From: an uncultured Candidatus Cenarchaeum sp.
GTDB taxonomy: Archaea; Thermoproteota; Nitrososphaeria; Nitrososphaerales; Nitrosopumilaceae
Length of the DNA stretch: 64,000 nt
Assembly: GCA_958295735.1 (NCBI GenBank)
Contig: OY282369.1
Coordinates: 728,161 to 792,160 of the forward strand
Direction of reading: 5' to 3'
In this document: in pieces, positions 11,517 to 45,736 of the stretch
How positions within the stretch are numbered: the first letter of the stretch is position 1
How the letters are laid out: the number at the start of each line of letters is the position of its first letter
The notes under the pieces: generated by a model
What the model saw: only the letters and a program-made list of their open reading frames with translations
Database searches by the model: none
Told to the model about the DNA's origin: nothing
Program-made: the position numbers and the translations under genes

Positions 11517-11983
11517 GGGTAGAACGCAGCAACATATAGTCTTTGCTTATTGACGCGTATTGTGTTGTGCGAGAATTAAGTCACACTAACTTCAGGCGGC
11601 CGGCGGCGGTTTTTAGGCCGTGCCAGCCGCAAGGGCGGGCGGCTGGCTTCCCGGCCCGCAGGCGGATCAAGCACGGGGCATGGGAACGCGGGAAGGGGCG
11701 GAGCGCCCGGAGCGGGACGAGGAATGGGGGCGACAGGGGCGCGCGGAGGTCACCAGCGGGGTGCGTGCCATTCAGCATGCTGTGCGGCCGGCGACCTCCG
11801 GCGCGCATCCCGACGCTGGGGCGGGCGGCGGCCGTCGCGGGGGGCGCGGCCGGCGCCGCATCCCGCCGATCTGCTCCCGCGCAGCACCTGCCCGAAAACG
11901 CGCGCGGATCTGCCAGCCGCGCCCGCCCTAGAGAAAATGCGCGGGCCCGGTCCCGGCGGGGCGGCCCCCGGGCGCCCGGCGTT
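11517..11983. other. Non-coding gap between repeat array and AAA gene
   Basis: No supportable gene is seen. The first 80 bp are AT-richer than the surroundings (around ACATATAGTC and GAATTAAGTC) and could hold a promoter, but nothing obvious follows it. The rest is GC-rich, with only low-complexity frames. Confidence 0.4.
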
Positions 11984-12916
11984 TTACGCGCCCTTCCTTA
12001 TCGCCCGCTTTCTTCTCTTTTGCTCGTTAAAAGCCCATTCCATGTCGCTGTTCAGCACCGTGTCGCGCCCCCTGATCACGCTGAACCTTATCGCATCCTT
12101 GCATATCTGGGCGAGGTCGGCAGGCGAGTACTTGCCGGTGTTCCTCGCCATCCGCTCCAGGTCGCAGTCGGGGTCGTGCCTGGCGTAGCCCAGGTATTTT
12201 TCCAGGATCTCCCTCCGCTGTCCGGGGCCGGGAAGGTCAAAGTGCAAGATCTCGTCGAAGCGCCTCCAGACGGCGCCGTCCAGCAGATGCGGGTGGTTGG
12301 TCGCCGCTATTATGATGCTGTCCCCGTCGTACGTGTCGAGCATCTGCATGAAGTGGTTGACGACCCGCTTGATCTCGCCGTGCTCTGTGGGATCGTCCCG
12401 GCTCTTGCCCACTATGTCGAACTCGTCGAAAAGCGCGACGTACCTGCCTTCCTCCACGAACGAGAAGACCTTGCGCATGTTGGTGGCCGTCTCCCCCAGC
12501 AGCGACGAGACGATCGAGTCGAACAGTATGTAGGCGAACCGGTAGCCGATCATGCTGCTCATGATCCTGGCCGAGAGCGTCTTGCCGGTGCCCGGGGGGC
12601 CGCAGAACAGGATCGTCCGCTTGGGCTTCAGGCCCAGCGCGCGCAGGTCGTCCAACTTTGCGTTCTCGTCGACTATGTACTGGAGGCGCTCCTTCACGTG
12701 GTCGCCCAGGACGAGATCGTCCATCAAGCGGGCCTCGCTGCTCAGCCGCAGCAACGGGAGCCCCCTGTCCGCGTCGTGGGGGATCTCCACGCGGGGCGGC
12801 GGGGCGGGGCGGCGCGCGCTCCCGAGCTTGACCGCTGGCGCCCCGTCCGCTCCCGTCCGCTCACCCAGCGGCAGGCTGGTTCGGCGCGCGCTCCCAAGCC
12901 TGGGCCTTCCGTTCAC
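11984..12916 (-). CDS. Orphan AAA ATPase, IetA-like
   Basis: 310-aa classical AAA ATPase. Walker A GPPGTGKT begins at residue 106, Walker B is ALFDEFD (about 162-168), then AATNHPHLLDGAVWRRFDE with sensor-1 Asn and the arginine-finger pair, and a small C-terminal lid. It is clearly paralogous to the AAA gene at 34174-35025 (shared LPLLR N-terminal motif, LLGETA-N-RKVF, HGEIKRVVN-FMQMLD, and a KRRKR-type end). That family resembles IetA, the ATPase of the two-gene IetAS (AAA plus subtilase) addiction/antiphage systems. Here no subtilase-like partner follows. The start is GTG 12916 with a TATA-like element at 12941-12950. Confidence 0.82.
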   Translation of the reverse strand: MNGRPRLGSARRTSLPLGERTGADGAPAVKLGSARRPAPPPRVEIPHDADRGLPLLRLSSEARLMDDLVLGDHVKERLQYIVDENAKLDDLRALGLKPKRTILFCGPPGTGKTLSARIMSSMIGYRFAYILFDSIVSSLLGETATNMRKVFSFVEEGRYVALFDEFDIVGKSRDDPTEHGEIKRVVNHFMQMLDTYDGDSIIIAATNHPHLLDGAVWRRFDEILHFDLPGPGQRREILEKYLGYARHDPDCDLERMARNTGKYSPADLAQICKDAIRFSVIRGRDTVLNSDMEWAFNEQKRRKRAIRKGA

Positions 12917-12950: not shown

Positions 12951-13057
12951 CTCGCCCGGCCGCGGTACACACTTACCTCCCCCCCCCTCCCGCCGCGACT
13001 TGGCCGCCCGGGCGGGCCCGCGCGCCGCGCAAGCTTAGGCTGGCCTAAGGGTCGATT

Positions 13058-13067
13058 TGTATAATTG
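13058..13067 (+). promoter_or_regulatory. TATA-like promoter of the IS66-type transposase
   Basis: TTGTATAATT lies about 27 bp before ATG 13090. The frame is open from TTG 13057, but that codon overlaps the box itself, so ATG 13090 is the better start. Confidence 0.5.
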
Positions 13068-13089
13068 TGGCGAGTTTGGGCCTGCCGGC

Positions 13090-30343: not shown

Positions 30344-30468
30344 TGGACGTAAGTCTACACACCTGCTGGTGCAGACTTACGTCCAAACCGAAACCGCGCC
30401 TAGCAACGGCAAGCCACCTCATGATCTCACGCCCAGATCACGATGGACGTAAGTCTACACACCTGCTG
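30344..30468. repeat. 25-bp direct repeats and a hairpin upstream of the SIR2 gene
   Basis: TGGACGTAAGTCTACACACC plus CTGCTG occurs at 30344 and again exactly 100 bp later at 30444. Between them, AGACTTACGTCC (30373-30384) is the inverse of GGACGTAAGTCT (30345-30356), giving a 12-bp stem with a 16-base loop. Related GTGGACGTAGG and TCCACGTAGG motifs lie at 30271 and 30321. The set could be operator sites, an attachment site, or a structured RNA. Confidence 0.82.
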
Positions 30469-30477: not shown

Positions 30478-30486
30478 GTTTATAAA
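30478..30486 (+). promoter_or_regulatory. TATA box of the SIR2 gene
   Basis: GTTTATAAA lies about 27 bp before GTG 30510 and overlaps ATG 30486. A transcript would therefore start after that ATG, which argues for GTG 30510 as the start. Confidence 0.6.
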
Positions 30487-30509
30487 TGGCAAGAACAATA
30501 TGCATCAGC

Positions 30510-31502
30510 GTGAATGTGGCGTTATTTTTGGGTGCCGGAGCATCCGTTCCATATGGTAAGCCCGCCATAAAAGATCTCAACAATGCTCTCTTATCTAAAC
30601 TAAACGATTACAAGGACTTTCTATCATTCCACCCAGATACTGAACACGCTCTGACAGCAATTCAGAACATTGTCAAATTTAATGGTGAAGTGGGGGGAAG
30701 TTACTGGAACAAAGAACGCAGTCACGACCTTGAAGGGTTGCGGGTCTTGGAGAATGAAATCCATGGTAAAATCTACGACATTTATGCGTGGAAACACGAC
30801 TTTGATGGAACCGCATCTACCATATTTTCATCTCTTTTTGACCTCATTCAAGAACGAAGCAAAATTACGATTTTTACTACAAACTACGATAAAAGCGTGG
30901 AAGAGTATTGTGGCCTACCCGAACGCAATCTTAAATGCATAGACGGGTTTGTCCCCCGTGGAGGGTACAATGTTTGGGAAGGACACAATGCAGACTCGAA
31001 TGAGAATGACGGCAAACGTAAGGTATTTCTATACAAACTTCATGGCTCCCTAGACTGGACAATGCACAAAAAGCATGGACCTATAAGAACAGGTGTAGAA
31101 CGAATGTGCACATCAGTTCCCAACCATGACCATGATTTGCTGATATACCCGACATTGTCAAAAAACAACGCCGAATATAACAAATTATTTACTAAAATTT
31201 TTACAGGATTTGAAAATGAGTTGAGAATTCAGGATGTTTGCGTTGTGGTGGGATTCTCATTCCACGACGAAATGATCCGGAATCAATTCATGAAATTCGT
31301 TGAGGCCGGAAAAAAACTCATCATAATAGATCCAAACCCAGACACAAATTTTCGACACGTGATATTGGGGAAATCGCAAGATTGTGACCAAGAACAATCA
31401 AAACAAAACATACATCACATCCAAATGGAGCTAAGTGTCGACTCGGTCGACTCCATTATCAATCAGATTAATGAGTCCGAGTATGTTGACAATTCGTCCT
31501 GA
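30510..31502 (+). CDS. SIR2-like (SIR2_2) protein, AT-rich, likely defence gene
   Basis: 330-aa protein with a SIR2-type NAD-binding core: FLGAGASVPYG at the N-terminus, TTNYDKS with Asn125, KLHGSLDW with His178, and VVVGFSFHDEMIRNQF. Bacterial and archaeal proteins of this type often cleave NAD+ during antiphage defence (for example ThsA, DSR and SIR2-HerA systems), but here it stands alone with no obvious partner. The gene is strikingly AT-rich for the window (bases 30781-30840 hold only 23 G/C), a strong sign of recent transfer. GTG 30510 was preferred to ATG 30486 because of the TATA box position. Confidence 0.85.
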   Translation: MNVALFLGAGASVPYGKPAIKDLNNALLSKLNDYKDFLSFHPDTEHALTAIQNIVKFNGEVGGSYWNKERSHDLEGLRVLENEIHGKIYDIYAWKHDFDGTASTIFSSLFDLIQERSKITIFTTNYDKSVEEYCGLPERNLKCIDGFVPRGGYNVWEGHNADSNENDGKRKVFLYKLHGSLDWTMHKKHGPIRTGVERMCTSVPNHDHDLLIYPTLSKNNAEYNKLFTKIFTGFENELRIQDVCVVVGFSFHDEMIRNQFMKFVEAGKKLIIIDPNPDTNFRHVILGKSQDCDQEQSKQNIHHIQMELSVDSVDSIINQINESEYVDNSS

Positions 31503-32105
31503 TTTTGAAACGAGTTGTGTTTTATCAATAGGAATTGCCGCCAATCGGCCTGCTGGCTGAAATAAGTTGACGCCCAAGTTAAATCCCCTGTGCGCGACAC
31601 GATGGCACGCCAAACTCGTTCAAGCGGCAGAATGCTACACCCCAGAACGAGGCAGAGGGGCCAGAGCTGGAGTTAGAAAACTAGCTAGAGGTTGAAATGC
31701 GCTCCCGCGCCTAGCGCAGGCGCAGACGGCCGAAATGAGCAGGAGTTGTTGAGCGTACGGATCAATTATCACGACGCCGGCGGTTAATGGACGACACTTC
31801 GATCCGCCAGCATGTATCATGACAATAGATGACCGAAGCAGCAACCACTGGTCACTAGAAGCGCGTTTAGCACCTTGCACGCCAGAAGTTAAAAATGCGC
31901 TCCCGCACCGGGCCGCAAGGAATCGCCTGCCACTGTCTGCGTTCGTGGCCATGGTGGTCGGCCTCGCGCTGACGATCACAGAGGCGAACATGGGCGAACA
32001 AGGTTACCATTCTGTGCGTGAAATAGCACACTTTCAACATCTGGCGCGGGGCGTGTTCGTCACCGTACCGGGCCGTCGTCGATGCGATCAGGCGGGGACC
32101 GCCGC
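31503..32105. other. Region without recognisable genes after the SIR2 gene
   Basis: About 600 bp of intermediate GC content. ORFs of 60-130 codons exist on both strands, but none resembles a family. A short repeated motif (AATGCGCTCCCGC at about 31697 and 31892) is the only structure noticed. I found no S8 peptidase motif that could belong to the neighbouring truncated subtilase gene. Confidence 0.45.
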
Positions 32106-32816
32106 TTACACCGGGGGCAACGGCGGTCTGTCCACCGAGGCTACTGCATCGATACGGATCAGCAGATCCAAGAATTCCTGGTTGGCGTCAAGCACCACGA
32201 AGTAGAGGCCCCCATTGCCCCGTTCCCTGTGCACCGCGAAGCCCCGGTCGTACGCCAGCCTCTGTATCAGGGCAAGCGAAGCACTAGGCACAAGCTTGTC
32301 GCGGCCAGGCCGGATCCTAGACAGGCTGACGAATATTTTTTCTGCCTTAGTCCGTTTCAAAGGATTCGCGGCCAGCCGTTTCCCGATCTTGGCCTTCGCC
32401 TCAAACTCGTCAAACCCGTTTATGGCATCCACAAAGCTCGGCTCGTCCTCGTCTGCCCTTTTCCGCAGCCGCTTTTTGAGTTTTGCAAATCCCGCGTCGT
32501 CCGTGGCCATGATCCATTCCGGCTTCCCTCCAGCCACGGGGTCTATCGTGTCGCAACCGGTCCCTTCAAGATCGCGGCGAAAGTCCTCGTCGTCCGCGGG
32601 CCGGTTCGTCTTGATCTTGAAGACCAGCCTCTGATCGTTCCAAGGAAGTTCCGGCATCGGCCCGCGGTTCCCTCCTATCCGGTCAAGGCGCGCCATCTGG
32701 GATTCCGCGAACTCGCGGGGGTCCCGATCAGCCCTGTCGTATCCGCGCCCCTGCGGGATCTTTTTCCCCGGAGGTCCCCCGCGTGGCGTGGTAACTGAAT
32801 TCGAGTCGTCCGCCAT
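32106..32816 (-). CDS. Stand-alone N-terminal domain of an IetS-like subtilase (copy 1)
   Basis: 236-aa protein: RDPREFAESQMARLD, then DQRLVFKIKT, then EWIMATDDAGF and a globular part ending RIDAVASVDRPP. This matches, from memory, the region that precedes the peptidase domain in S8 peptidases encoded beside AAA ATPases (IetAS type). The S8 catalytic domain (D-S/T-G, H-G-T-H, G-T-S-x-A) is absent here and downstream. The frame stops at TAA six codons before the TGA that copy 2 uses. ATG 32816 lies 2 bp after the stop of an AAA remnant. Confidence 0.65.
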   Translation of the reverse strand: MADDSNSVTTPRGGPPGKKIPQGRGYDRADRDPREFAESQMARLDRIGGNRGPMPELPWNDQRLVFKIKTNRPADDEDFRRDLEGTGCDTIDPVAGGKPEWIMATDDAGFAKLKKRLRKRADEDEPSFVDAINGFDEFEAKAKIGKRLAANPLKRTKAEKIFVSLSRIRPGRDKLVPSASLALIQRLAYDRGFAVHRERGNGGLYFVVLDANQEFLDLLIRIDAVASVDRPPLPPV

Positions 32817-32818
32817 GT

Positions 32819-33045
32819 CTACTTTGACTCCATGATTCTCTTCCTGCGCTTCTGTTCTTCCGTGGCCCACAGCATGTCGCTCTTGGACACGGATGCGTGC
32901 TTGTCCATGACGCATTTCCAAAAGTCGTCCTCGCAGACGGCCGCGGAATATCCGGGCGTGCCCTCGGCGAACTCCGATGCTTCCATAGCATCGACTGACA
33001 ATGAGCCCATATATTATTTAGCAGTTCCGCGCGTATGAGAACGGC
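32819..33045 (-). pseudogene. C-terminal remnant of an IetA-like AAA ATPase
   Basis: About 75 codons match the end of the AAA protein at 34174-35025: RAELL, then (after a one-base shift) MGSLSVDAMEASEFAEGTPGYSAA and DMLWATEEQKRRKR, ending ESK. The nucleotide-binding domain is missing, so this AAA is dead. The geometry to the next gene (stop, two bases, start) is the same as in the intact copy, showing that a whole two-gene unit was duplicated and one ATPase was later lost. Confidence 0.78.
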
Positions 33046-33439
33046 ACCCACGCCCGCGCCAAGCGCGGGAGGAAGGGGTTCCGACCCCATGTGCGTTTCA
33101 TACCGCCCACTAACGCTGAACGCAGGATCTTCAATCCAGGAGAGGAAGATTCGCGCCGGTGTGCGGAGTGGCCTTCTGATCCCGCCATCGCTCCAATACG
33201 AACACTTGGCTACACAGATCCCGCGTAACAGGTTGAGTCGCGCCGCATTCAAAATCCACACACGGGAAGTGCCGATGCTGCGCCGTTCTGGCAGCAATCC
33301 AGCCCGCTGGAAGCGTGGTTTTGAGGAGACAGCGGCGAATTAGCGCGGAGCATTTCCCGCTACTCGCCCGCGCCGCGCTGCCGCCGCCGCCGCCGCGCCC
33401 TGCCGCCGCCGCCGCCGCGCCCTGCCGTATGCGATGCGG
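33046..33439. other. Spacer with GCC-triplet runs between the two AAA/subtilase-like units
   Basis: No gene is supported. Bases 33369-33424 hold runs of CCGCCGCCG in two near-identical blocks of about 24 bp each. They lie just downstream of the copy-2 stop codon. Confidence 0.5.
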
Positions 33440-34171
33440 TCAGGCGGGGGCCGCCCCGTCCAGCCTGATCGACGGCGGCCTGTCCACCCAAGCCACCGCA
33501 TCGATGCGGACCAGCAGGTCCAGCAGTGCCCGGTCGGCGTCGAGCAGCACGAGGCAGAGGTTCTTCGCGATCAGCTCGTCGCGCACCGCGAGGCCCCTGC
33601 CGCGCGCCAGTCTGCGTATCAGGGCGAGCGCGGCGTCCAGCGAGTCGTCGCCGCGGTCGGGCCGCGTCCTCGCCAGGCTCACGACCAGCTGTTCCGCCGC
33701 GTTCCGTCCCGGGGGATGCGCGGCCAGTTGTTCCCCCATCCTGTCCCCCGCGCCGAACTCGGCGAACCCGCCTATGGCGTCCACGAAGTTCGCCGTCCTC
33801 CTCCCGGCTCTTTTCCGCAGATGCTCCCTGAGTTTTTCGAATCCCGCGTCGTCCGTGGCCACGATCCATTCCGCCTCCTCGCCCGGCGCGGATGCGATCG
33901 TGTCGCAGCCGGCCCTCTCGAGATCGCGGCGGAAGCGGCCGTCGTCCACGCGCTGGCGCGTCCTGATCTTGAAGACCAGCCTCTGATCGTACCCTTTGAA
34001 TTCCGGCATCGGCCTGTGGTTCTCGCCTATCCCGTCGAGGCGCGCCGCCTGGGATTCCGCGAACTCGCGGGGGTCCCGATCGGCATTCTTGTACCCGCGC
34101 CTCCGCGGGATCTTTCTCTGGAACGGCTCCCCGTACGGCTGGAGACCCAGGTGCTCAAAGTCGCCCGCCAC
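33440..34171 (-). CDS. Stand-alone N-terminal domain of an IetS-like subtilase (copy 2)
   Basis: 243-aa homologue of the protein at 32106-32816: RDPREFAESQAARLDGI, DQRLVFKIRT, CDTIA, EWIVATDDAGFEKLREHL, ending RIDAVAWVDRPPSIRLDGAAPA. Again the S8 peptidase domain is missing. GTG 34171 starts 2 bp after the AAA stop (TAG, two bases, GTG). Sequence around the stop (GGCGG-CCCCGCCTGA-CGCATCG) is still alignable to copy 1, so the truncation came before the duplication. The conserved spacing suggests the ATPase and this domain work as a pair. Role unknown; possible functions are an adaptor for the ATPase or an immunity remnant. Confidence 0.68.
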   Translation of the reverse strand: MAGDFEHLGLQPYGEPFQRKIPRRRGYKNADRDPREFAESQAARLDGIGENHRPMPEFKGYDQRLVFKIRTRQRVDDGRFRRDLERAGCDTIASAPGEEAEWIVATDDAGFEKLREHLRKRAGRRTANFVDAIGGFAEFGAGDRMGEQLAAHPPGRNAAEQLVVSLARTRPDRGDDSLDAALALIRRLARGRGLAVRDELIAKNLCLVLLDADRALLDLLVRIDAVAWVDRPPSIRLDGAAPA

Positions 34172-34173
34172 GC

Positions 34174-35025
34174 CTACTTCGACACCATGATTCCCTTCCT
34201 GTGCCCCTGTTCTTCCAATGCCCACAGCACGTCGCCCTCGGACACGGATGCGTGCCTGTCCATGACGCATTTCCGGAGGGCGTCCACGCAGACGGCCGCG
34301 ACGTCGGCCGCGGAGTATCCGGGCGTGCCCTCGGCGAACTCCGAGGCGTCCACGGCGTCGGACTTCATGGCGCCCATGTATTTTTCGAACAGTTCCGCGC
34401 GCTGCCGGGCGTCCGGCACGCCCAGCTTCACCACCTCGTCGAACCGCCTCCACACGGCCGCATCCAGCAGGCGGTGGTGGTTGGTGGCGGCGATCAGGAT
34501 GCTGTCCCCGCCGTATCCGTCCAGCATCTGCATGAAGTTGTTGACGACGCGCTTGATCTCCCCGTGCTCCTGCGGATCGGCGCGGTCCTTGCCTATCATG
34601 TCGAACTCGTCGAACAGGACCACGTAGCGGCCCTTTTCGACGAAATCGAAGACCTTCCTGAGGTTCGCCGCGGTCTCCCCCAGGAGGGGGGACACCAGCG
34701 CGTCGAACACGACGTGCACGAACGGGCATCCCATGGCGCTGCCGATGATCTTGGCGCTGAGCGTCTTGCCGGTGCCGGGCTCGCCGCAGAGCAGGATCTT
34801 CTGCTTCGGCGCCAGGCCGTGCCGCCTCAGCCTCTTCGCGCTCCTGTTCTCCGCCACGATGCGCGACAGCCTCTGCCGCGTCTTCCCGTCCACCACGATG
34901 TCGTCGAAGGTGTAGCGCTCTTTGGTCATCCTCAGGAGCGGGATCCCCCTCTCGCTGTCGGCGGGTATCGCGACGTCCTTTCGTGGCTCTACCTCGATGC
35001 CGCGCCTGTTGATCGGCATGTCCAT
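34174..35025 (-). CDS. IetA-like AAA ATPase
   Basis: 283-aa AAA ATPase. N-terminal region with IPLLRMTKERYTFDDIVV, Walker A GEPGTGKT from residue 81, Walker B VVLFDEFD (Asp139), AATNHHRLLDAAVWRRFDE (sensor 1 and arginine fingers), and a C-terminal lid PGYSAADVAAVCVDAL. Such ATPases pair with S8 peptidases in IetAS addiction/antiphage systems. ATG 35025 lies about 29 bp after a TATA-like element; the longer frame to 35175 runs through that promoter and is not real. The truncated subtilase-like gene follows 2 bp after its stop. All ATPase motifs are intact, so it should be active. Confidence 0.85.
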   Translation of the reverse strand: MDMPINRRGIEVEPRKDVAIPADSERGIPLLRMTKERYTFDDIVVDGKTRQRLSRIVAENRSAKRLRRHGLAPKQKILLCGEPGTGKTLSAKIIGSAMGCPFVHVVFDALVSPLLGETAANLRKVFDFVEKGRYVVLFDEFDMIGKDRADPQEHGEIKRVVNNFMQMLDGYGGDSILIAATNHHRLLDAAVWRRFDEVVKLGVPDARQRAELFEKYMGAMKSDAVDASEFAEGTPGYSAADVAAVCVDALRKCVMDRHASVSEGDVLWALEEQGHRKGIMVSK

Positions 35026-35050
35026 GCTCGGGCGTGCCGCCCCTTTGCCG

Positions 35051-35057
35051 TTATAAC
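35051..35057 (-). promoter_or_regulatory. TATA-like promoter of the AAA/truncated-subtilase pair
   Basis: GTTATAA on the minus strand about 29 bp before ATG 35025. Confidence 0.5.
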
Positions 35058-35212: not shown

Positions 35213-38200
35213 CTAGCCGCAGTGGGCCGCGTACACCACGAACTGCACGATGCCGTCCCCGCCCGGCGACCCGCCCGGCGGCGCGTCCTGCAGGTTGAGC
35301 CTGAACCGGACGTCGGCCGAGCCTCCAGGCGCGAGGCCCGAGGCGACCGCCATGCCCTGTTCCAGCGGCGCGAATGCGCCGCCCCGCGCCGCAGCCACCT
35401 CGGTGGCCCCCGCCGGCAACGCGGCGGCGCCCACTCCCGAGGCGCCGTCCGGCGGGCCCCACGCGGTCGCGTTCACCGTGACGCGGAGCAGGTCGCCGCT
35501 CCCCTCGTTGCGCACCGACTGGACGAGCTCCCCCGACGCGCCCCCGCGCCGCACGCCGCCGAAGTCCATCACGTGCTCTGATATGGAAGCGCCGCACGCC
35601 GCGGCCCCGCCTTCCAGCACTGCTACCTTTTCCGCCCCCCCGCCGGGCAGCGCGCGCCACATCCCGTACGAGAACGGCCCCTCCGGATCGCCGTCCGGAT
35701 CGAGGCGCGGCGCGCCCAGGGCCCAGTCCCCCGCAACCGCCCCCGCCGCGGCCCGCTCCACCGCGGCGGGCGCGGGGCCCTGCATGGCGAGCGACCTGGC
35801 GGCCAGGAATACCGCGTCGCGCGCGGCGTACGCGTACGCGAGCCCCGCTTCCGCCGGCAGCGCGGGGGAGCGGGGCGGCGGGGACGGCGCGTGCTGCGGC
35901 CCGCTACTCCCGTTCCCGAGGGCCGCGGCGAGCCGTGTATTCGCGGCGTTGGGGGGCGCGTCCAGCGCCAGCGAGACCAGCCCCACGGACCCCGCGAATT
36001 TGGCGGCGTCGGGGCCGGCCTCCTCCCCCGACGAGGCCTGGGCCGCGGCATCCGGCACGTACCACTTTACGCGCCCCAGCATCGGGGCGTCGCGCGCGGC
36101 CTCCGCCAGGCCGGCGAACTGCGCGTCCGTCCCCGCGAACAGCACCGCGAGCCGCGACTCGCCGTGTTCCGCGGCGGCGCGCACCAGCATCTCCTGCGCC
36201 GCCCGCGCCGCGCCGGCCGGCCCCGCGGCGCCCTCCCCGATCACCACGGCATCGGCGAACCGCCCCCCCGACACCGCGGCAAAGTCGCCCCGCACGCGGT
36301 CGGCCATCCAGCGCGAATACGCGTCGCCGCCCAGTATCGGGACGACCAGCGCCGCCCCGCCGCGCTGGACGGCGTCGGCCGCCGGCGCGGAGGCGGCGCC
36401 GGAATGGGGCACGAGCCGGAATATCCCGTCCCGGGCGGCCAGCGCGGGATCCACCGAGGCGGGGGATATCAGCGCGAGGCCGTGCTCCGCCGCGTGCGGG
36501 GCCATCGCGGACAGCGCCGCCGACGAGGACGGCCCCACGTACGCGGAGGGCCCGCTCCCCGCCCCCGCGGCGTGCCCGGCGCCGAAGAGCAGGCCGCCGC
36601 GCCGCACTATCAAGGAGCGCCTCTCCTCCATGTCGCCGCCGGACGAGGCGTTGTGGTCCACCCACGCGCGCTCGCCCTCGCCCGGCAGCCTGGCGAGCGC
36701 GGCAGCGTCGGGGACGAACGGCGCCGGGCCGCCGGCCAATACGGTCCCGTTCGCGTCCAGCACGAACGGGCGGTGGCCGCGCCCGGCGCCCAGCCCGTCG
36801 ACGGCGCCCGGCTCGCCGCCGGCGGCATCGTAGGCCCGCACCGCGGCCGCTACCGAGCGGTTCAGGACGGGCCCCCAGTACGCGTCGTCGGCGCCGCGGT
36901 GGAGGCCCTCCAGCGCGGCCAGCGGGGAGGCCAGCCTGACGTCCGCCACGGCCAGCTCCACGGAGGCGGCAGCGGTGCCGTTCGCGGCGCTGCCGTTCAC
37001 GGTGCCGTTCCCCAGCAGCGCGGAATTGTAGTCCCGCGCCGCGATTCGGGCCGCCGCCAGCATTCCGCCGGCCGGCCCGTCCAGCCCCGGCAGGTCCGTG
37101 AGCGACGCCAGCACCCCCACCAGCCCCGGGCCGCCGCCCGGGGCGGCGGGGCGCCACGCCACGGCGCCGCCGTCGCCGGCCCGGAAGCGCGAGTCGTCCG
37201 GCTCGTAGCCCGGATAGTAGTTGGCCCGCGCGTCCAGCACCCCGGGCGCCTCCGTCGCCACTATATCGGCGGAGGGGGCCGCCGGCCCGTGCAGCACGTT
37301 GTGGTTGAACCTCACCGCCGCGGCCGGCGCGCCGCCCGGCGCGTGCTCCAGCAGGAAGGCCGGCCCCTGCGGCAGGTGCACGCGGTTTCCCGTTGCCGCG
37401 ACGCCCGGCCCCGCCGCCTGCACTGTTATGGCTGCCGGCGCCGGCGAGTTGAATATTGCGTTGCCGGATATCCGGACGTCCCTGGCCCCCTCCACGGACA
37501 CGGCCGGCCCGCGCAGGTCCTCCATGTGGTTGCGCTCTATCGCGGTGCCGCGCGCCCCCGCCAGCACGATCCCCGCCGAGGCGGGGCCGAAGATATGGTT
37601 GGACAGTACGGCGGAGTCCCATATCGGCACCGTGCTCCTGACGGCCGCCGCGCCGGAGGGGGCCCGCCACTCGAACGTGCTGCCGGTCACGGCGAGCCCG
37701 CCCGCGGGGGCGCCCCTCACGAGCACCGCGTCGGCGCACGTGTCCTCGAACCGGCCGTCCCTTACCGCGACGGGGCCGCCTGCCGCCGACCGCACCGTGA
37801 CGGCGCCCGAGCCGTCCGGCATGCAGTCCGTGCCGACGAACGCGAGGCCCTCCAGCACGACGGCCCCCGCGCCCGCCGCGCTCACCACCATCCGGGAGGC
37901 GCCGGCGAACACGGCCCCCCCTTCCGACTCGGCCCTGACCGTCATGGGCCTGCCCACCGCCACGGTGGAGTTCCCGTACACGCCGTCCGGGATCACCGCG
38001 GTGCCGCCCGCCGGCGTGGAGGCGACTATGGCCTCGGGGCTGCCGGGATCGGGCGGGGGGCCCGGCGGCAACGTGGGAGGCGGGGGAGGCGGGGGAGGCG
38101 GGGGAGGCGGGGGCCTGGAGCCGTCCCTGCGCGGCTCCACGACGTACGCCCCGTCCCCCTCGGCCGGCACCGCGTATACGGGGCCCCCGCGGGGCGTGGC

Positions 38201-41200
38201 CGCCACGTCCCGCAGGCCGCCGGCCAGCGGCACTGTAGCGATGCGCCTGTCCAGCGCGGTATCGTACGCCACGAGCTCCGCGTCCGTTACGGCGTAGAGC
38301 GCCCCTCCCGGCGCGTCCAGCGACAGGGCGCGCGGCTCCCCCTCCAGGCGGTCCAGGCGGTACAGCAGGGCGGGGATCCCGGCCTCCCGCCCCGGTTCCG
38401 GGCCGACGCCGTAGACGGACACCGTGCCGTTCCCGTACAGGACGTACAGCTTTTCCCGGATCCCGTCCAGCTCCATGCCTATGGCAGGGGAGGGGGGATC
38501 CGCACCGGGCGGGTCCTCCAGCGCGCCCAAGAGGGTGTAGTTCGGGGTCGTCCCCGCGGGGCCCGGCGCCGCGAACGAGAGCGCCAGCACGCCGCGGCGG
38601 GGCGGGGGATCGCCGGCCCCCGATGCGTTCCCCCACGAGGCGGCCGCGTACGCCGTGGTGCTGTCCCCGGAGACAGCCATCGCCGTCGGCCGCCACGCGT
38701 GGTCGGTATACCGGTATTCCCCCGGCCCCGCGCCGAGGCCCGGCGCCCGCGCGCCCGCGGCATCCGCGGACAGTATGACGCCCTCTGACGGGAGCGGGCC
38801 GGGCCCCCGTAGCGACAGGCCCACGTACGCCGTCCCGTTAATAGCGCGCACGAAGGCGTCCGTCGCGTTGCGCAGCCGCTCCCCGGACGAGCCCGTCCAC
38901 TCCAGGGGGACGGGGGCGCCGGCGCCCCGCTCCAGATCCGCCGCAGTATAGTTGACCCCGTGCCCCGCGCCGCGCAGCGCCACGTGTATAGCTCCCGTGC
39001 TCCCGTCCGCGTCCATGCCCAGCATCCTGACGGCGCCCCCTTCGCCCAGCCGCGCGCGCGCGATCTCCGCGTGGCCGCCGCTCGCGTTGTACGCTATGAC
39101 CTCGGCCGCCCCGGCGGCCTCCCCGGGAAGGAGGGAGGCCGGCTCCCTGGCCGCCCACACTATCTGCGAGCCCGCGGCGTCCCTGCCGACCCCCGCCATG
39201 GTGCCGCCGGGGCCCGAGCCGGCCAGCCTGCCCGGCATCACTTCGTACCCGCACGCGTGGGCGAGCGGCGCGCAGGGCCCCTCGGCAGGAACCTGGCCGG
39301 GCGGCGCCGAGACGGCGCCGAACGCCCCGAGGCCGTACGAGTGCACGGCCTTGCCGGCGGGGCCGCCCGGCCCCGCCGCGTCTATGGCGCACGCGCCCGA
39401 GCCGCCCAGCTGCGCCGCTGCCGCGGCCGCCGAGTCCTCCGCGCACGTGGCGTTGACGAGCCGGACCGTCCCGGCCCGGTCCATCCGGAACGCTTCCATT
39501 CCCGACGCGTTGGGCAGGAATATCCGGGCGGGCCTGTCCAGCGACACGTCGCTGCCGGGATCGCCGATCTCCGTTACGGCGCCCACGGGGCCGCCCCCTA
39601 TCACGGACCTGTCCTGCGGGAAGCGGCCGGCCGGCCCCACGTATATGACCTCGCCGTCCGGCAGGCCGCCGAATGCCGTTCCCGCCTGGAACCGCGCCGA
39701 GGCCTGCGGCGAGCGCACCTCCAGGCCGTACGCGAGCCGCGCCTCGCCGCTGCCGCCGTCCAGCCCCGAAAGGTCGACGCGCGGGGCGGCGCCCGTTATG
39801 ACGCGGGCGAACGAGTCCGGCGTCAGCCTCACCGGCTCGGCGCCCTCCGCCTCCACCTCGGAGGCGCCGGGGGCCACCGGCAGGCCGGCCCTGCCCGGAT
39901 TGGCGTTGCCCGACGCGTCCTCGAACGAGCCGGGCGCGGCATCCAGCGCCCCGCCCCGCCCGGCGGCGAATGCCGGCCCGTCCAGGACGAGCAGCCGCGA
40001 GGACTGGCCGTCCCGCCCCAGCACCCTTTCCACCGCGGCCGTGAGCGGCGCGTCCCCGTCCCGGGGGACGAGCAGCCCCCCAAAGCCGGCCGCATCCACC
40101 CCGCGCACGGGCTCGCTGAACCGCACGTATACGGACGAGGTCCCCGCGGCCGCCGCCCGCACGACGAGGGGCGCCTGCCCGTCCCGCGCTTTTATTCCCG
40201 CGGCCCCCGCGAACTCCCACATCCCGACCCCGTCGGCCGCCGCCGTCCTGTGCGGGGAGGCATCGAGGCGCGCCCCCGCGTCGGGGGCGGCCGGCGGCCC
40301 GCCGAACCTTACCTCGTGGAGCGCGCCGCCCGGCGGCTGCGGCTGCGGCAGGGCCGTCCCCGCCACCGCCCTGGGGCCCCCGGGCTCCAGCACCAGCCCC
40401 GAATAGGAGGCGTTCCCCGGCGCGGGCCCGTCGTACCATACCCGCAGGGCGTCCGGGCCCGACACGGCGGCGCCCGACACCGAGACGGCGCCCACCGGCT
40501 CTATGATCGTCCCCCCCGCATCCGTCATCACGAGCACCCGGCCGTCGGGGGCCGCCGCGATGCCCGTCACGTTGCCGTCCACGCGGACGGAGCCGGCGGC
40601 CTCCTTCGCCCCGCCCGGAAAGGCCGCGTCGTACGCGTCCATGCTGCGCGGGCCGGCCGCGTACAGCACCCCGCGCTCCCCGTCCAGGGCCATGCCCGCA
40701 TACCGGACCCCGCCGTCCAGCACTACGGCGCCCTCGTATGCGGGCGCCGAGATGCCGCCCCGCGGCGCCATCGCGTACGAGACGATGCTCCCGTTCCCGT
40801 ACAGCACGTGCAGCCTCCCCCGCTCGTGGTCGAGCTCCATGCCCCGCGCCAGGAACGATCCCGGGTCCGGCGCGCCCGGCCCCGCGCCGTCGTGGGGCCC
40901 CTGCACGTTTAGGGTGTGCACCCTCGTGTAGTTCGGCGTGAACCGGCCTTCACCGTCCAAGAACGAGACCGTGTGTATCCCGTACGCGTTGGGGCGCCCG
41001 TGCTGTACGGCGGCATCCGCCCCGGCGTGCGCGGAGCCGGCCACGTGCAGCACAGAGCCGTTGGCCGCCATCGCCGTCGGCTGCCACGCCTCCGTACGGT
41101 ACGAGTACGGCGCGCCGCCCCCGCCGAGTTCGGCCAGCAGTGCGGCCGGCGACGCGTACGCGCGCAGCAGCTCGTCCCGTACGGTGTCCACGGCCAGTAT

Positions 41201-44200
41201 GGTCCCCCTGTCGGGATATTCCGCGGCGCCGGCCGGGGCCCCCGTCCCCACGTACGCCCTGCCGCCGGCGGCGTCCAGCTCCACGTCCATGCGGCCCAGC
41301 GAGGCCGGCTCGTCCCCCTCCCAGTCCACGAACCGCAGCGGGACCTGCGAGGAGATCGCGCCCGTCGCCGGCTGCACGGACACCAGCGCGCTCCCCAGGA
41401 CGGATGGCGCGGCCCCCGGCAGGTACTCCGTGACCACCATATACGCCTCCCCCGTCCGCCCGTCCACCTCCACGTCCGAGTCTATCCGCGTGGACCCCTT
41501 CCCCGCCGAGGCCGGGCCGGGCTCGAACGTTATGGCGCGCAGCAGGGAGCCGGCGTGGTCGAACACCAGCAGCTCCGCCGCCCCCGGCGCGCCGGGCGGG
41601 GCGGGGCGGCCCGCCGCGAACGAGAGGCCCCTGGCCTGGTCCGCCGCGATCGCGCCGCCGGCAACGTCCGCGCCGAACCGCGCCGCGGCCGCGTACCTGC
41701 AGCCGGCCGGCGGCGCGGGGCACGTGCCCGGCACTTTGGCATCCGGCGGCGGCACCACGTCCAGCTCCTCCCGGAACTCCCCCGCCGGGTTGCCAGCGGC
41801 GTCGGCCAGCGCCGGCGGGCCCCCCGCCGCGAACGCGAGGAACATCCCCGACGCGCCCCTGTGGCCCGGCGGCAGCGGCGGCAGCCCCGAGGCCGCCGCG
41901 CGCAGCTGGGCGAGCTGGCCGCCGGTCAGTTCCAGCACCACGACGTCCGAGCTGGTCGCGGGCGGGGCGGCCGCGCCGGCCAGGCTCACGTTGCCGCCCG
42001 CGGCCGGCTCCACGGCCATCCTGGAGGCATCGACGGAGGCGCCGTCCGCGTGCTCGTCCAGGTACAGCGTCACCGTCCCCGCCCGCAGGTCGAGGACGGG
42101 GGCGGCGCCCTCCAGCGGCAGGGGGCCGCGCGTGTCCGGCTCCACCGCGGGCCCGTACCCACGTATTCCCGCGAACGCGTTCCCCGACGGGTCGCCCGCC
42201 GCGGCGCCGCTCGCGTTGATCGCCAAGCCGCCCGCCTGCAGCGGCAGCAGCGCCCTCCGCTGCCACTCGGCCAGCCCCAAGTGCAGTATCCCCGGCTCCG
42301 GCTGCGAGGCGGAGGCCGGCGCGGGCGGCCGGACGGCCGCGGCGGGATCCGGGCCGTGGCCGCCCAGCCTTACCGCGATGCCGCCGCCGGGGGCGCCCAC
42401 CGCGATCCCGGAGAGGTCCAGCGAGGCGAGGTCCATCTGCTCCGTGAAGTTGAGCGCCAGGCGCGCCGGGGCGGCCAGGGACAGCACGGAGGCGCCGGCC
42501 AGCTCGGGCGGCGCGCGGTCGTCCGTTACGGTGGGAACTGCCCCGCCCAGCCCCGCGAACGGGTTGCCGGACTGGTCCGCGGCCGCCCCCGCCGCCGCGT
42601 CCACCCGCAGCCCCTCCCCGCCGAGCCGGGCGGCCGCGACGTCGCGGTGCTGCGCCCTCGTGAGATGCATCACGAGGGCGGTGTCCAGGTGGCCGCCGGC
42701 CTCCGGGGGGGAGACCGCGGCGCCCGCCAGGCCCACCACCGCCCCCCCGGGGACGGCCCGCACCGAGAACCCCGCGGGATCGGCGGCGGTCACGTTCACG
42801 AACTCGTCGAACTCCAGCGTTACGGTGGCGGCCCCGAGGTCCAGATCCGGCGTCGGATCGGCCAGCGCGGGGGGCGCCGAGTCGCCGGCCACGTCCAGTT
42901 CCGCGTGGCCGCCGGCGTAGTAGTTCCCCGACAGGTCCTTCACCGCCGCGCCGCCCACCTCCAGCCGCGGCGCGCGGCCCGAGTCCAGCGCCGCCAGGTA
43001 GTCGTACACCATGAACTGGCGCCGCTCCCCGGACAGCACTATGCTGAGCAGCCCCGGCTCGGGCTGCGAGGCCGAGGCCGCGTCCCGCAGGTCCTCGGGG
43101 TACCCGGTCAGGTCCACGGCGATCCCGCGCAGGTCGACCGCGCCCGCGTCTATCCGCTCCGTGAACCGCACGTCGAGGATGCCGGCCGACAGGTCCAGGC
43201 GCGGCGGCATATCTGCCAGCTCCGGCGGCTCCCCCTCCGCCACGAACAGGCTCGCGTTGGAGATCCCCGCGAAGGCGTTCCCCGACAGGTCCGCGACCGC
43301 GCCGGGATCCACGCTCACGCGGGCGGGGCCCGCGCGCGCGTGGAGGTCGGCTATCCTGGAGGCGACCGCCGGGTCCGTTATGGTCACGTTCAGCAAGTCC
43401 GTGTCGGAAGGGGGGACGGATGCGGACGAGGGCGAAAGCACGGTGGCGTTCCCGCCGGACGCGTTGGACACGGATATCCCCGACAGGACGACCGCGCCCG
43501 CATCCACGCGCTCCGAGAACCTCAGCTCCAGCGTGCCCGTGCCCGTGTCGAGCGCGGGCCCGCGGGGGCCCGCGAGGACCGGCGCCGCCCCGTCCGGGAC
43601 GACCTCGAGCGTCACGTTCGAGGCGCCCCCGAACGCGTTCCCCGACGCGTCGCTCGCGGCGCCGGCCCCAATGTCGGCCGCCAGCTGCCCCGGCGAGCCG
43701 GCGAGCGCGGCGTGCTGCCCCGGCCCGAGCCGCACCCTGACGAGCCCCGCCGACGGCTGCCGCGCCTCGGCGTCCGGTTCCAGCGTCGCGGCCGCCGTGC
43801 CGTTCGCGTGCCGCACCGTCACCAGCGACGGGTCGAGCGTCCCGAGATCGACGGCCTCCGCGAAGCGGATTTCCAGCACGGCCGCCCCCAGGTCCAGGCG
43901 CCCCCCCTCCGCGGCCGCCCCCGGGAACGCCGAGTCCGGCGCCGCCGCGACGCGGGCCGCCGCGCTCCCCGCGTAACGGTTCCCCGTGAGATCCTCGACG
44001 GCCGTCCCGGATATCGAGGCGGACAGCGCGTCCCCGTACGCCGCGTGCGCGGCCGCCGCGGCGCGGTGCTGCTCCGCCGTGAGGCGCAGCACGGCGGCCC
44101 CGCCGGGCCCGGCCGCGGCGGACGCGCCCGCCAGCCCGACCCGCCCTTCCTGGACGCCCCCCGCCCCCAGCGAGATCCCGGAGGGGTCGGCGGCCACGGG

Positions 44201-45736
44201 CTCGTCGAAGCGCATCGCGAGGGTGGCCGACGTCAGGTTCAGCAGGAGCGGCGGCCCTTCCCGCCCGCTGTCCAGCTCCGGCGGCGTCTCGCGCGGGGCC
44301 AGCACCAGCACGTCGCTGCCCCGCGCGAGGGCCACGTACACGGTCCCGTTCGGGCCGGCGGCCAGCCCCGCGGGCCGGCGGTCGCCCCCCACCCCGGCGA
44401 TCCCGGCCAGCTTTCCGGACTCCGCGTCGTACGCGCGCACGCCCTGCGGCTCGGCCCGGAACCCGGCCACGTACAGCAGGCCGCGGGGCCCGTCCAGCAT
44501 CACGTCCGTCCGCTCCAGCGTCGACTGGTCGCGCGCGCCGGCCGTCAAGTCCCCCATGCTCGCCTCGAACGCGGGGATGCCCACGGTCCCGTTCCTGCTC
44601 CCCGCCAGATCGTACGAGGCCAGCGTGCCGTTCCTGTGCAGGACGTACAGCTTTTCCCGCTCCTCGTCCACCTCCATGTCGTGCGCGGCGACCATGTTCC
44701 AGCAGTCCCGCCTGGTGGCCTCCGAGTACGTCCCGGATATGGCCCGGTCGGCCAGGCCCGCGAGCGCCCTCCCGGACACCGACGGGTGCTGGCTGAACCG
44801 GCCCGCCGCATCCTCGAACAGCAGCGCGTTCACCCCGTACTCCGCGTCGTGCAGCGGCAGGCCGCCCCCGCACGCGCGCGCGGTCGCGGCGAGGGCCTCC
44901 GAGGCGCCGCCGCGGTCGGGGCCGAGCACCGCCGCGCTGGCGTACAGCGAATTGGAGCCGGCCGTCCCGTTGAGCGCCATGGCGGAAGGCAGGAACGCCC
45001 CCGTCCCCGCGCGCGATGCGCCGGCCGGGAGCAGGGCCGGCGCGCCGCCTGACCAGTCGATGACCGCCACGAGCCCGTCTGCTGGCAGGCCGCCCTGATC
45101 GCCCGGCGCGCTGCGGACCGCCATCACGTACGCGCGGCCGGAATCCTGGTCCACCAGCACGCGGCGCGCCTCGATCCCGCCGCCCCCCGGCGCCCCGTCC
45201 CAGCGCGGGACGCCGCCCAGGTCCACCGATCCCGCCATATTGTGGCCGTCCGCGGGATCCAGCACGGCCACGCCGGCGCCCGCCGCGACGTACACCATCC
45301 CCGTGCCCTCGTGCACGTCGATGCCGCGCACCGCGCTCACGAACGGCACCGACCCTACCAGGGCGTGGCCGCCGCTGCTGTCGTACGCGCGGACGGCCCA
45401 CCCGCCGTCGCCGTCATGGCCCGCCACGTACAGCAGGCCGTTTCCGGGGTTGAACCGCACCGCGAAGTTGCCCCCCGAGGCCGGCTCCCCCGGGCCGCGC
45501 GGGACGGAGAGCGCCACCGGGAACTCGCAGTCCGACACGGTGCCCCCCAGCGGCGGGCACGTCACCTCGGGCGCCTGGGCCAGCGCTGCTGGAAAAAAAG
45601 GGGCCTCCCCGTGCGGCCCGCCGGCAACAAGGGCGGCGGAGCACGCCAGCAACACGCAGAACAGCAGGGGCCGCGGGCCCGCGTCGCGGCTGACGAGGAA
45701 CGGCGCCGCTTCAGCCGGCGGAACGGCGCGGCTCAT
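35213..45736 (-). CDS. Giant secreted protein (3507 aa): propellers, Ig-like repeats, beta-helix, PBP/Cache module
   Basis: Signal peptide (LLFCVLLACSAALVA), then: YVTN/NHL-type beta-propeller (about residues 60-480); seven Ig-like SbsA-type repeats of about 115 aa (480-1325; core LDLxxGxLxxRFxExxD); second propeller (1325-1740); more Ig-like units; third propeller (2150-2530); a 13-Pro tract; right-handed beta-helix (2565-2860); a type I periplasmic-binding-protein fold (2870-3290) that carries a Cache-like segment (WVDHNASSGGDMEERRSLIV); and a C-terminal beta-sandwich ending VVYAAHCG. No membrane anchor is visible. Modular homologue of the 4520-aa protein in the same operon. Likely a cell-surface sensor, adhesin or wall component; ligand unknown. 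ATG 45736 lies 39 bp after the CFI-box gene. Confidence 0.85.
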   Translation of the reverse strand: MSRAVPPAEAAPFLVSRDAGPRPLLFCVLLACSAALVAGGPHGEAPFFPAALAQAPEVTCPPLGGTVSDCEFPVALSVPRGPGEPASGGNFAVRFNPGNGLLYVAGHDGDGGWAVRAYDSSGGHALVGSVPFVSAVRGIDVHEGTGMVYVAAGAGVAVLDPADGHNMAGSVDLGGVPRWDGAPGGGGIEARRVLVDQDSGRAYVMAVRSAPGDQGGLPADGLVAVIDWSGGAPALLPAGASRAGTGAFLPSAMALNGTAGSNSLYASAAVLGPDRGGASEALAATARACGGGLPLHDAEYGVNALLFEDAAGRFSQHPSVSGRALAGLADRAISGTYSEATRRDCWNMVAAHDMEVDEEREKLYVLHRNGTLASYDLAGSRNGTVGIPAFEASMGDLTAGARDQSTLERTDVMLDGPRGLLYVAGFRAEPQGVRAYDAESGKLAGIAGVGGDRRPAGLAAGPNGTVYVALARGSDVLVLAPRETPPELDSGREGPPLLLNLTSATLAMRFDEPVAADPSGISLGAGGVQEGRVGLAGASAAAGPGGAAVLRLTAEQHRAAAAAHAAYGDALSASISGTAVEDLTGNRYAGSAAARVAAAPDSAFPGAAAEGGRLDLGAAVLEIRFAEAVDLGTLDPSLVTVRHANGTAAATLEPDAEARQPSAGLVRVRLGPGQHAALAGSPGQLAADIGAGAASDASGNAFGGASNVTLEVVPDGAAPVLAGPRGPALDTGTGTLELRFSERVDAGAVVLSGISVSNASGGNATVLSPSSASVPPSDTDLLNVTITDPAVASRIADLHARAGPARVSVDPGAVADLSGNAFAGISNASLFVAEGEPPELADMPPRLDLSAGILDVRFTERIDAGAVDLRGIAVDLTGYPEDLRDAASASQPEPGLLSIVLSGERRQFMVYDYLAALDSGRAPRLEVGGAAVKDLSGNYYAGGHAELDVAGDSAPPALADPTPDLDLGAATVTLEFDEFVNVTAADPAGFSVRAVPGGAVVGLAGAAVSPPEAGGHLDTALVMHLTRAQHRDVAAARLGGEGLRVDAAAGAAADQSGNPFAGLGGAVPTVTDDRAPPELAGASVLSLAAPARLALNFTEQMDLASLDLSGIAVGAPGGGIAVRLGGHGPDPAAAVRPPAPASASQPEPGILHLGLAEWQRRALLPLQAGGLAINASGAAAGDPSGNAFAGIRGYGPAVEPDTRGPLPLEGAAPVLDLRAGTVTLYLDEHADGASVDASRMAVEPAAGGNVSLAGAAAPPATSSDVVVLELTGGQLAQLRAAASGLPPLPPGHRGASGMFLAFAAGGPPALADAAGNPAGEFREELDVVPPPDAKVPGTCPAPPAGCRYAAAARFGADVAGGAIAADQARGLSFAAGRPAPPGAPGAAELLVFDHAGSLLRAITFEPGPASAGKGSTRIDSDVEVDGRTGEAYMVVTEYLPGAAPSVLGSALVSVQPATGAISSQVPLRFVDWEGDEPASLGRMDVELDAAGGRAYVGTGAPAGAAEYPDRGTILAVDTVRDELLRAYASPAALLAELGGGGAPYSYRTEAWQPTAMAANGSVLHVAGSAHAGADAAVQHGRPNAYGIHTVSFLDGEGRFTPNYTRVHTLNVQGPHDGAGPGAPDPGSFLARGMELDHERGRLHVLYGNGSIVSYAMAPRGGISAPAYEGAVVLDGGVRYAGMALDGERGVLYAAGPRSMDAYDAAFPGGAKEAAGSVRVDGNVTGIAAAPDGRVLVMTDAGGTIIEPVGAVSVSGAAVSGPDALRVWYDGPAPGNASYSGLVLEPGGPRAVAGTALPQPQPPGGALHEVRFGGPPAAPDAGARLDASPHRTAAADGVGMWEFAGAAGIKARDGQAPLVVRAAAAGTSSVYVRFSEPVRGVDAAGFGGLLVPRDGDAPLTAAVERVLGRDGQSSRLLVLDGPAFAAGRGGALDAAPGSFEDASGNANPGRAGLPVAPGASEVEAEGAEPVRLTPDSFARVITGAAPRVDLSGLDGGSGEARLAYGLEVRSPQASARFQAGTAFGGLPDGEVIYVGPAGRFPQDRSVIGGGPVGAVTEIGDPGSDVSLDRPARIFLPNASGMEAFRMDRAGTVRLVNATCAEDSAAAAAAQLGGSGACAIDAAGPGGPAGKAVHSYGLGAFGAVSAPPGQVPAEGPCAPLAHACGYEVMPGRLAGSGPGGTMAGVGRDAAGSQIVWAAREPASLLPGEAAGAAEVIAYNASGGHAEIARARLGEGGAVRMLGMDADGSTGAIHVALRGAGHGVNYTAADLERGAGAPVPLEWTGSSGERLRNATDAFVRAINGTAYVGLSLRGPGPLPSEGVILSADAAGARAPGLGAGPGEYRYTDHAWRPTAMAVSGDSTTAYAAASWGNASGAGDPPPRRGVLALSFAAPGPAGTTPNYTLLGALEDPPGADPPSPAIGMELDGIREKLYVLYGNGTVSVYGVGPEPGREAGIPALLYRLDRLEGEPRALSLDAPGGALYAVTDAELVAYDTALDRRIATVPLAGGLRDVAATPRGGPVYAVPAEGDGAYVVEPRRDGSRPPPPPPPPPPPPPTLPPGPPPDPGSPEAIVASTPAGGTAVIPDGVYGNSTVAVGRPMTVRAESEGGAVFAGASRMVVSAAGAGAVVLEGLAFVGTDCMPDGSGAVTVRSAAGGPVAVRDGRFEDTCADAVLVRGAPAGGLAVTGSTFEWRAPSGAAAVRSTVPIWDSAVLSNHIFGPASAGIVLAGARGTAIERNHMEDLRGPAVSVEGARDVRISGNAIFNSPAPAAITVQAAGPGVAATGNRVHLPQGPAFLLEHAPGGAPAAAVRFNHNVLHGPAAPSADIVATEAPGVLDARANYYPGYEPDDSRFRAGDGGAVAWRPAAPGGGPGLVGVLASLTDLPGLDGPAGGMLAAARIAARDYNSALLGNGTVNGSAANGTAAASVELAVADVRLASPLAALEGLHRGADDAYWGPVLNRSVAAAVRAYDAAGGEPGAVDGLGAGRGHRPFVLDANGTVLAGGPAPFVPDAAALARLPGEGERAWVDHNASSGGDMEERRSLIVRRGGLLFGAGHAAGAGSGPSAYVGPSSSAALSAMAPHAAEHGLALISPASVDPALAARDGIFRLVPHSGAASAPAADAVQRGGAALVVPILGGDAYSRWMADRVRGDFAAVSGGRFADAVVIGEGAAGPAGAARAAQEMLVRAAAEHGESRLAVLFAGTDAQFAGLAEAARDAPMLGRVKWYVPDAAAQASSGEEAGPDAAKFAGSVGLVSLALDAPPNAANTRLAAALGNGSSGPQHAPSPPPRSPALPAEAGLAYAYAARDAVFLAARSLAMQGPAPAAVERAAAGAVAGDWALGAPRLDPDGDPEGPFSYGMWRALPGGGAEKVAVLEGGAAACGASISEHVMDFGGVRRGGASGELVQSVRNEGSGDLLRVTVNATAWGPPDGASGVGAAALPAGATEVAAARGGAFAPLEQGMAVASGLAPGGSADVRFRLNLQDAPPGGSPGGDGIVQFVVYAAHCG
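38079..38115 (-). repeat. 9-bp repeats encoding a polyproline linker
   Basis: Runs of AGGCGGGGG encode 13 successive prolines that separate the third propeller from the beta-helix. This looks like a rigid spacer between modules. Confidence 0.85.

What the first reader, a model, noticed from the sequence alone, without database searches (positions are those of the whole stretch)
32106..35057. Duplicated AAA ATPase plus stand-alone subtilase N-domain: a peptidase-less IetAS-like system
Two neighbouring units pair an IetA-like AAA ATPase with a protein that matches only the region before the S8 peptidase domain of IetS-type subtilases. Both start two bases after the ATPase stop. Both lack the Asp/His/Ser peptidase blocks. 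Sequence around the terminal TGA is still alignable between copies, so the truncation existed before duplication, yet both short ORFs remain open. A conserved, separately encoded domain suggests a working two-component system without protease, or one using a peptidase in trans. Family match is from memory; function is inference.
Basis: partly seen in the sequence, partly recalled or inferred. Interest (0 to 1): 0.8.

Follow-up and report, generated by a model that had tools for sequence, protein, structure and literature searches.

The report
Toxin-less remnant of an IetAS module
A sponge-type archaeon carries a toxin-antitoxin/phage-defence gene pair (IetAS) whose toxic protease half was lost, followed by a partial, decaying duplicate; the first copy could still make the harmless half, but most evidence points to a disarmed relic rather than a new working system.

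Summary
The short proteins are genuine IetS N-terminal domains. Both align to residues ~10-240 of full-length IetS (761-775 aa) from related archaea and stop in the linker just before the S8 peptidase. No S8 remnant lies nearby, and the genome's only two subtilases look secreted and are not IetS-like. "Two units, each with an ATPase" is wrong. Unit A (33440-35025) has an intact IetA. Unit B (32106-33010) keeps only the last ~63 residues of IetA, with no ATPase motifs. A third, solitary IetA lies at 11984-12916. The partners keep one ungapped register and share an in-frame TGA, so truncation probably preceded duplication. Selection is weak: omega 0.46 (GY94; 0.72 by NG86), no different from 0.51 for the dead ATPase tail beside it; N_B is the more eroded copy. 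No other archaeal genome searched has a stand-alone copy paired with IetA, but IetA plus truncated IetS has arisen independently on bacterial plasmids through IS21 insertion or frameshift. Best reading: an IetAS module that lost its toxin; A may still express IetA plus the N-domain (TATA-like box, coupled start), B is decaying. A working peptidase-less system is possible but unsupported.

The parts
34174..35025 (-). IetA AAA+ ATPase of unit A (283 aa), intact: Walker A GEPGTGKT, Walker B VVLFDEFD, sensor-1 AATN, arginine-finger region WRRFDE
   Evidence: Pfam AAA 4.4e-27; PADLOC IetA 5.9e-81; alignment A4 with five other IetA
35051..35056 (-). TATA-like box TTATAA about 30 nt upstream of the IetA_A ATG; putative archaeal promoter
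   Evidence: One of only 3 TTATAA in the 64-kb window; promoter role is inference
33440..34171 (-). N_A: stand-alone IetS N-terminal domain (243 aa, GTG start 2 nt after the IetA stop), no S8 peptidase; ends 10 codons after the VDRPP motif
   Evidence: predicted as two tandem ferredoxin-like units
32819..33010 (-). IetA remnant of unit B: last ~63 codons of the ATPase with a 12-nt deletion; no ATPase motifs
32106..32816 (-). N_B: second stand-alone IetS N-domain (236 aa, ATG 2 nt after the remnant's stop); more eroded copy, N-terminal HLxL motif lost
32072..32105 (-). 3' flank still homologous between copies; contains the in-frame TGA that aligns with the N_A stop
11984..12916 (-). Third IetA (solitary, no IetS domain nearby), 53-55% identical to IetA_A
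30486..31502 (+). Neighbouring SIR2-like protein, tail-to-tail with unit B, 40% G+C; part of the same accessory island, not shown to work with it
   Evidence: Pfam SIR2_2 1e-11, PADLOC SIR2 6e-26, composition, island boundary by synteny

Best explanation
The locus descends from an ordinary IetAS module (IetA AAA+ ATPase = antitoxin/regulator, IetS subtilase = toxin/effector). A deletion or rearrangement removed the S8 peptidase and everything after it, leaving IetS as its N-terminal domain (two predicted ferredoxin-like units). The 3' part of this disarmed operon (IetA tail + N-domain + flank) was then duplicated in tandem. Unit A still encodes an intact IetA and the N-domain behind a TATA-like box and is probably expressible; by the toxin-antitoxin logic of the family it is harmless and could at most bind or neutralise an incoming IetS. 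Unit B has no ATPase and is decaying. Shown: homology, truncation point, absence of S8, remnant ATPase, divergence pattern. Inferred: order of events, expression, residual neutralising activity.
For: N-domain homology to full-length IetS with the same IetA-IetS gene order in three relatives. No S8 trace in the 8-kb region or window; PF00082 detects real IetS at 98-112 bits, yet in the whole genome it finds only two secreted-type subtilases. Unit B ATPase is a 63-aa stub. Ungapped register over ~700 nt and a shared in-frame TGA. omega 0.456 for N_A/N_B versus 0.508 for AAA_A/dead AAA_B tail and 0.031 for AAA_A/AAA_3; substitutions spread evenly over codon positions, 53/57/59. N_B is the faster-eroding copy: where archaeal IetS agree, A keeps the ancestral residue 18 times and B 7; profile bits 117 vs 80. 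The same state arises independently on plasmids: intact IetA + IetS cut at residue ~286 (pNGR234a) or ~256 (P. zucineum) by IS21, frameshifted in Rhizobium CC1099. Solitary IetA recurs in other thaumarchaea. Literature: AAA is antitoxin and S8 protein toxin (PMC8562856); a minimal mycoplasma with the toxin deleted and the AAA gene kept grows without noticeable impairment (PMC6755753).
Against: Both short frames stayed open with no net frameshift through ~26% nucleotide divergence; by simulation a neutral frame stays open with probability ~0.3 against stops alone and ~0.02 or less once assumed indel rates are included. GY94 rejects omega = 1 (2dlnL 11.6), so part of the history was under selection. 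Coupling of IetA_A to N_A is preserved.
Confidence: 0.66

Rival explanations
1. Retained anti-toxin ('anti-addiction') pair: IetA_A plus the free N-domain is kept by selection because it sequesters or inactivates IetS proteases brought in by plasmids or other elements, making the cell immune to IetAS-based incompatibility.
For: IetA is the antitoxin in this family (PMC8562856, PMC6755753); the last N-domain unit (beta-alpha-beta-beta-alpha-beta running straight into S8) has the topology and position of a subtilisin propeptide; frames open; TATA-like box; IetAS is common on conjugative plasmids.
Against: No Pfam I9 match, no propeptide among listed Foldseek hits; weak constraint on the N-domains; not found as an established gene in other genomes.
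Confidence: 0.17
2. A working peptidase-less two-component defence system in which IetA remodels targets with the N-domain as adaptor.
For: Intact ATPase motifs, preserved operon layout, omega below 1.
Against: Unit B lacks the ATPase; constraint no stronger than on the dead ATPase tail; no recurrence with sequence conservation elsewhere; IetA C-termini show no proteasome-docking HbYX ending (direct reading).
Confidence: 0.08
3. The N-domain proteins recruit an S8 peptidase encoded elsewhere (in trans).
For: Two S8 genes exist in the genome, at 699 kb and 889 kb.
Against: Both look secreted and lack the IetS-type N-domain (reading); no IetS-type S8 anywhere in the assembly (96.75% complete).
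Confidence: 0.03
4. Assembly or sequencing artefact.
For: Reads were not available, so the order could not be verified.
Against: Copies differ at ~26% of sites and lie in one 3.17-Mb contig; both frames end in the same linker.
Confidence: 0.04

Closest known systems
IetAS (ietA/ietS) of Agrobacterium pTiC58 and anti-phage IetAS (PADLOC; NCBIfam NF042959)
   Same: IetA AAA+ ATPase followed directly by the IetS N-terminal region; same gene order and spacing
   Different: S8 peptidase and C-terminal half of IetS are missing; unit B also lacks the ATPase; NF042959 equivalog cut-off not reached (221 vs 510 bits)
AAA-ATPase/subtilisin-like protease toxin-antitoxin modules of mycoplasmas (A132/T133)
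   Same: Antitoxin AAA gene upstream of toxin gene
   Different: Here the toxin's catalytic half is gone, like the viable toxin-deleted, AAA-retained strain of PMC6755753
IetA + IS21-truncated IetS of Sinorhizobium fredii pNGR234a and a Phenylobacterium zucineum plasmid
   Same: Intact IetA with IetS cut just after the N-domain
   Different: There an IS21 element sits at the break; here no IS was recognised and the truncated part was duplicated

Membership tests
IetAS | IetA-type AAA+ ATPase with intact Walker A/B | tested here: met
   Unit A: PADLOC IetA 5.9e-81, motifs intact. Unit B fails: 63-aa stub
IetAS | Adjacent IetS with S8 peptidase (Asp/His/Ser) | tested here: not met
   No S8 match to either partner, none in window, no IetS-type S8 in genome
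IetAS | IetS N-terminal domain directly downstream of IetA | tested here: met
   Profile and pairwise matches to N-domains of archaeal and plasmid-borne IetS
IetAS | Anti-phage or plasmid-stability/incompatibility activity | not testable with these tools
   Needs bench assay
Type II toxin-antitoxin pair | Toxin and neutralising antitoxin both encoded | tested here: not met
   The catalytic (toxic) part is absent
Subtilisin propeptide / I9 inhibitor | I9 sequence family match | tested here: not met
   No I9 match in Pfam at E<=10 for any of 9 N-domains
Subtilisin propeptide / I9 inhibitor | Ferredoxin-like fold immediately before S8 | tested here: inconclusive
   AF2 model pLDDT 71: tandem beta-alpha-beta-beta-alpha-beta units; Foldseek hits only generic ACT/RRM-type tandems, none at E<=0.001

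The most novel reading that the evidence does not exclude
IetA_A and the free IetS N-domain are a selected, protease-free immunity pair that neutralises IetS toxins of invading elements, the N-domain acting as a trans-acting propeptide-like inhibitor delivered or tightened by the IetA ring; truncation of the toxin would then have turned a killer module into protection against its own kind.
Probability: 0.17. Interest if true: 0.62.

Novelty: new variant of a known kind. Interest (0 to 1): 0.32.

Why it matters
It delimits the IetS N-terminal region as a separable domain of about 235 residues, shared by archaeal and plasmid-borne IetS and absent from Pfam, and shows that IetAS modules repeatedly lose the peptidase while keeping IetA. 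If unit A proved to protect against an intact IetS, it would show how a toxin-defence module becomes an immunity gene and would point to the N-domain as the inhibitory element of IetS.

Tried and rejected
S8 remnants by low-stringency tblastn around both units and in the whole window: none. S8 in trans: two secreted-type subtilases only. Stand-alone N-domains elsewhere in archaea: none paired with IetA in 400 Nitrososphaeria genomes, all 250 held of the family or 398 of the phylum; one distant 281-aa truncated IetS-like frame without IetA. First scan of genome contigs with P0002 found nothing; the alignment scan found two relatives with full-length IetS. Viral-contig scans: none. PDB by sequence: nothing for IetS or the N-domain. 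Full-length IetS fold failed (pLDDT 43), so the N-domain/S8 interface could not be read. I9 propeptide homology not supported by sequence. NG86 dN/dS (0.72, 0.48-1.07) was supplemented by GY94 with F3x4 because of the G+C bias. Rfam: nothing in 28-36 kb.

Full report
SETTING. The window is G000:C1:728161-792160 of a 3.17-Mb single-contig genome, 96.75% complete. The congener G089 is 2,045,086 bp, which matches Cenarchaeum symbiosum by size (my recollection). Gene order around 24.7-30.3 kb is shared with G089 up to the gene ending at 30299 and was not found to continue beyond it in the stretch fetched. The stretch 30.3-35.2 kb has lower G+C (0.39-0.72) than its 0.70-0.80 surroundings. It looks like an accessory island holding a SIR2-like gene and the two units.

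WHAT IS THERE. Unit A: IetA_A, 34174-35025(-), 283 aa, is IetA by PADLOC (5.9e-81) and has all AAA+ motifs. N_A, 33440-34171(-), starts with GTG two bases after the IetA stop. Unit B: N_B, 32106-32816(-), starts with ATG two bases after the stop of a 63-aa frame (32819-33010) that matches only residues 214-283 of IetA_A. The finding's 'duplicated ATPase' is therefore wrong: B has a stub. A further solitary IetA lies at 11984-12916(-), with no IetS homology around it.

FAMILY. Pfam, PADLOC and NCBIfam give nothing for N_A or N_B. A search of relatives does: in G104, G070 and G260 the N-domain is the first ~240 residues of a 761-775-aa protein lying immediately behind an IetA gene. PADLOC calls these proteins IetS (down to 2e-103), and Pfam finds S8 from residue ~256-260 on. 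The same domain heads IetS on rhizobial and other plasmids. N_A and N_B end 10 and 5 codons after the start of the linker that follows the conserved VDRPP closing the domain; the S8 domain would start about 25 residues later. AlphaFold2 on four sequences (pLDDT 71) gives two successive beta-alpha-beta-beta-alpha-beta units. Foldseek finds only generic ferredoxin-like tandems, none at E<=0.001.

WHERE THE PEPTIDASE WENT. No S8 homology remains in the 8 kb around the units or in the window. PF00082 recognises true IetS at 98-112 bits, but in this genome it finds only two subtilases, at 699 kb and 889 kb. By inspection both have hydrophobic leader-like stretches and lack the IetS N-domain.

HISTORY. 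N_A and N_B keep one register (spacing 1352) from 32058 to 32754, and homology continues through the stop into the flank. The N_A stop TGA is present in frame in B, six codons after B's own TAA. The simplest order is truncation, then duplication of IetA tail + N-domain + flank, then an earlier stop in B. A-to-B differences at third positions are mostly GC in A and AT in B (39 vs 7), consistent with relaxed selection on B but also with uneven amelioration.

SELECTION. NG86: dN/dS 0.72 (0.48-1.07), differences at codon positions 53/57/59. GY94 with F3x4: omega 0.456, 2dlnL 11.6 against omega 1. The internal control matters: the IetA_A tail against the dead B stub gives 0.508, although that stub cannot be an ATPase, while IetA_A against IetA_3 gives 0.031. 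The N-domain value is thus about what one constrained plus one decaying copy would give. B is the more eroded: 7 versus 18 ancestral residues kept, profile bits 80 versus 117, N-terminal HLxL motif lost. Against pure neutrality, both frames stayed open without net frameshift; simulated neutral drift leaves ~0.3 probability from stops alone and much less with assumed indel rates. I read this as N_A still or until recently constrained and N_B more recently released; the data do not settle it.

IS IT A RECURRENT ARRANGEMENT? Among Nitrososphaeria (400 genomes), the family (250) and the phylum (398), this genome is the only one with a stand-alone N-domain paired with IetA. One distant archaeon, G555, has a 281-aa truncated IetS-like frame without IetA. 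On plasmids the arrangement recurs as visible damage: pNGR234a (IetS 1-286, then IS21), Phenylobacterium zucineum (to ~256, then IS21), Rhizobium sp. CC1099 (two frameshifts, truncated), all with intact IetA. Solitary IetA also occurs in G177 and G260 (an assembly gap lies ~1.7 kb downstream in G177). Losing the protease while keeping IetA is thus a repeated outcome.

MECHANISM. In this family the AAA protein is the antitoxin and the subtilase the toxin (PMC8562856, citing Yamamoto et al. 2009 for pTiC58). Deleting the toxin while keeping the ATPase caused no noticeable growth impairment in JCVI-syn3A (PMC6755753). A truncated toxin is therefore easily tolerated. Unit A has a TATA-like TTATAA about 30 nt before the IetA ATG, one of three in 64 kb, so the pair is probably expressible. 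The last N-domain unit sits where subtilisin propeptides sit and has a compatible strand-helix order (established knowledge of subtilases), so a residual role as inhibitor of incoming IetS is a fair hypothesis. Pfam I9 does not match and the full-length IetS model failed, so it stays a hypothesis.

VERDICT. The domain observation is real and precise; the 'two ATPase units' and 'working system' parts are not supported. This is an IetAS module that lost its peptidase, with an intact IetA + N-domain pair and a decaying partial duplicate.

Noticed in passing
window 30369-30460: A ~92-bp element with 17-bp terminal inverted repeats (GTGCAGACTTACGTCCA / TGGACGTAAGTCTACAC) occurs about 40 times in the genome at 78-98% identity: a MITE-like family. 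One copy sits just upstream of the SIR2-like gene; another adjoins a SIR2 paralogue near 1111.7 kb.
   Followed up: partly
window 30486-31502; G000:C1:1107948-1108779 and 1110741-1111758: SIR2-like gene of 40% G+C in a ~70% G+C region, with two paralogues (65-68% DNA identity) about 350 kb away.
   Followed up: partly
window 13057-14820: IS66-like transposase frame with near-identical copies at about 694 kb and 883 kb of the genome (L023 1990-3768, L024 941-2719), next to the solitary IetA at 12 kb. IS66 naming is from memory.
   Followed up: no
window 10770-11535: Four near-identical tandem copies of a short repeat (DLRCRFLGLLPGRPQLLAKRNR in one frame) run into the end of the 10513-11253 frame.
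   Followed up: no
L057 2501-6872; L058 2440-6693: On pNGR234a and a Phenylobacterium plasmid an IS21 element has cut IetS just after its N-domain while IetA stays intact: natural peptidase-less IetAS alleles.
   Followed up: yes
window 35213-45736 and 47725-61287: Giant proteins of 3507 and 4520 aa with right-handed beta-helix and ANF-receptor-like regions, in the same orientation nearly side by side.
   Followed up: no
L069 4892-5737: In distant archaeon G555 a 281-aa frame resembles the IetS N-domain and stops just after the S8 Asp motif (VAVLDSGV), without an IetA nearby.
   Followed up: partly
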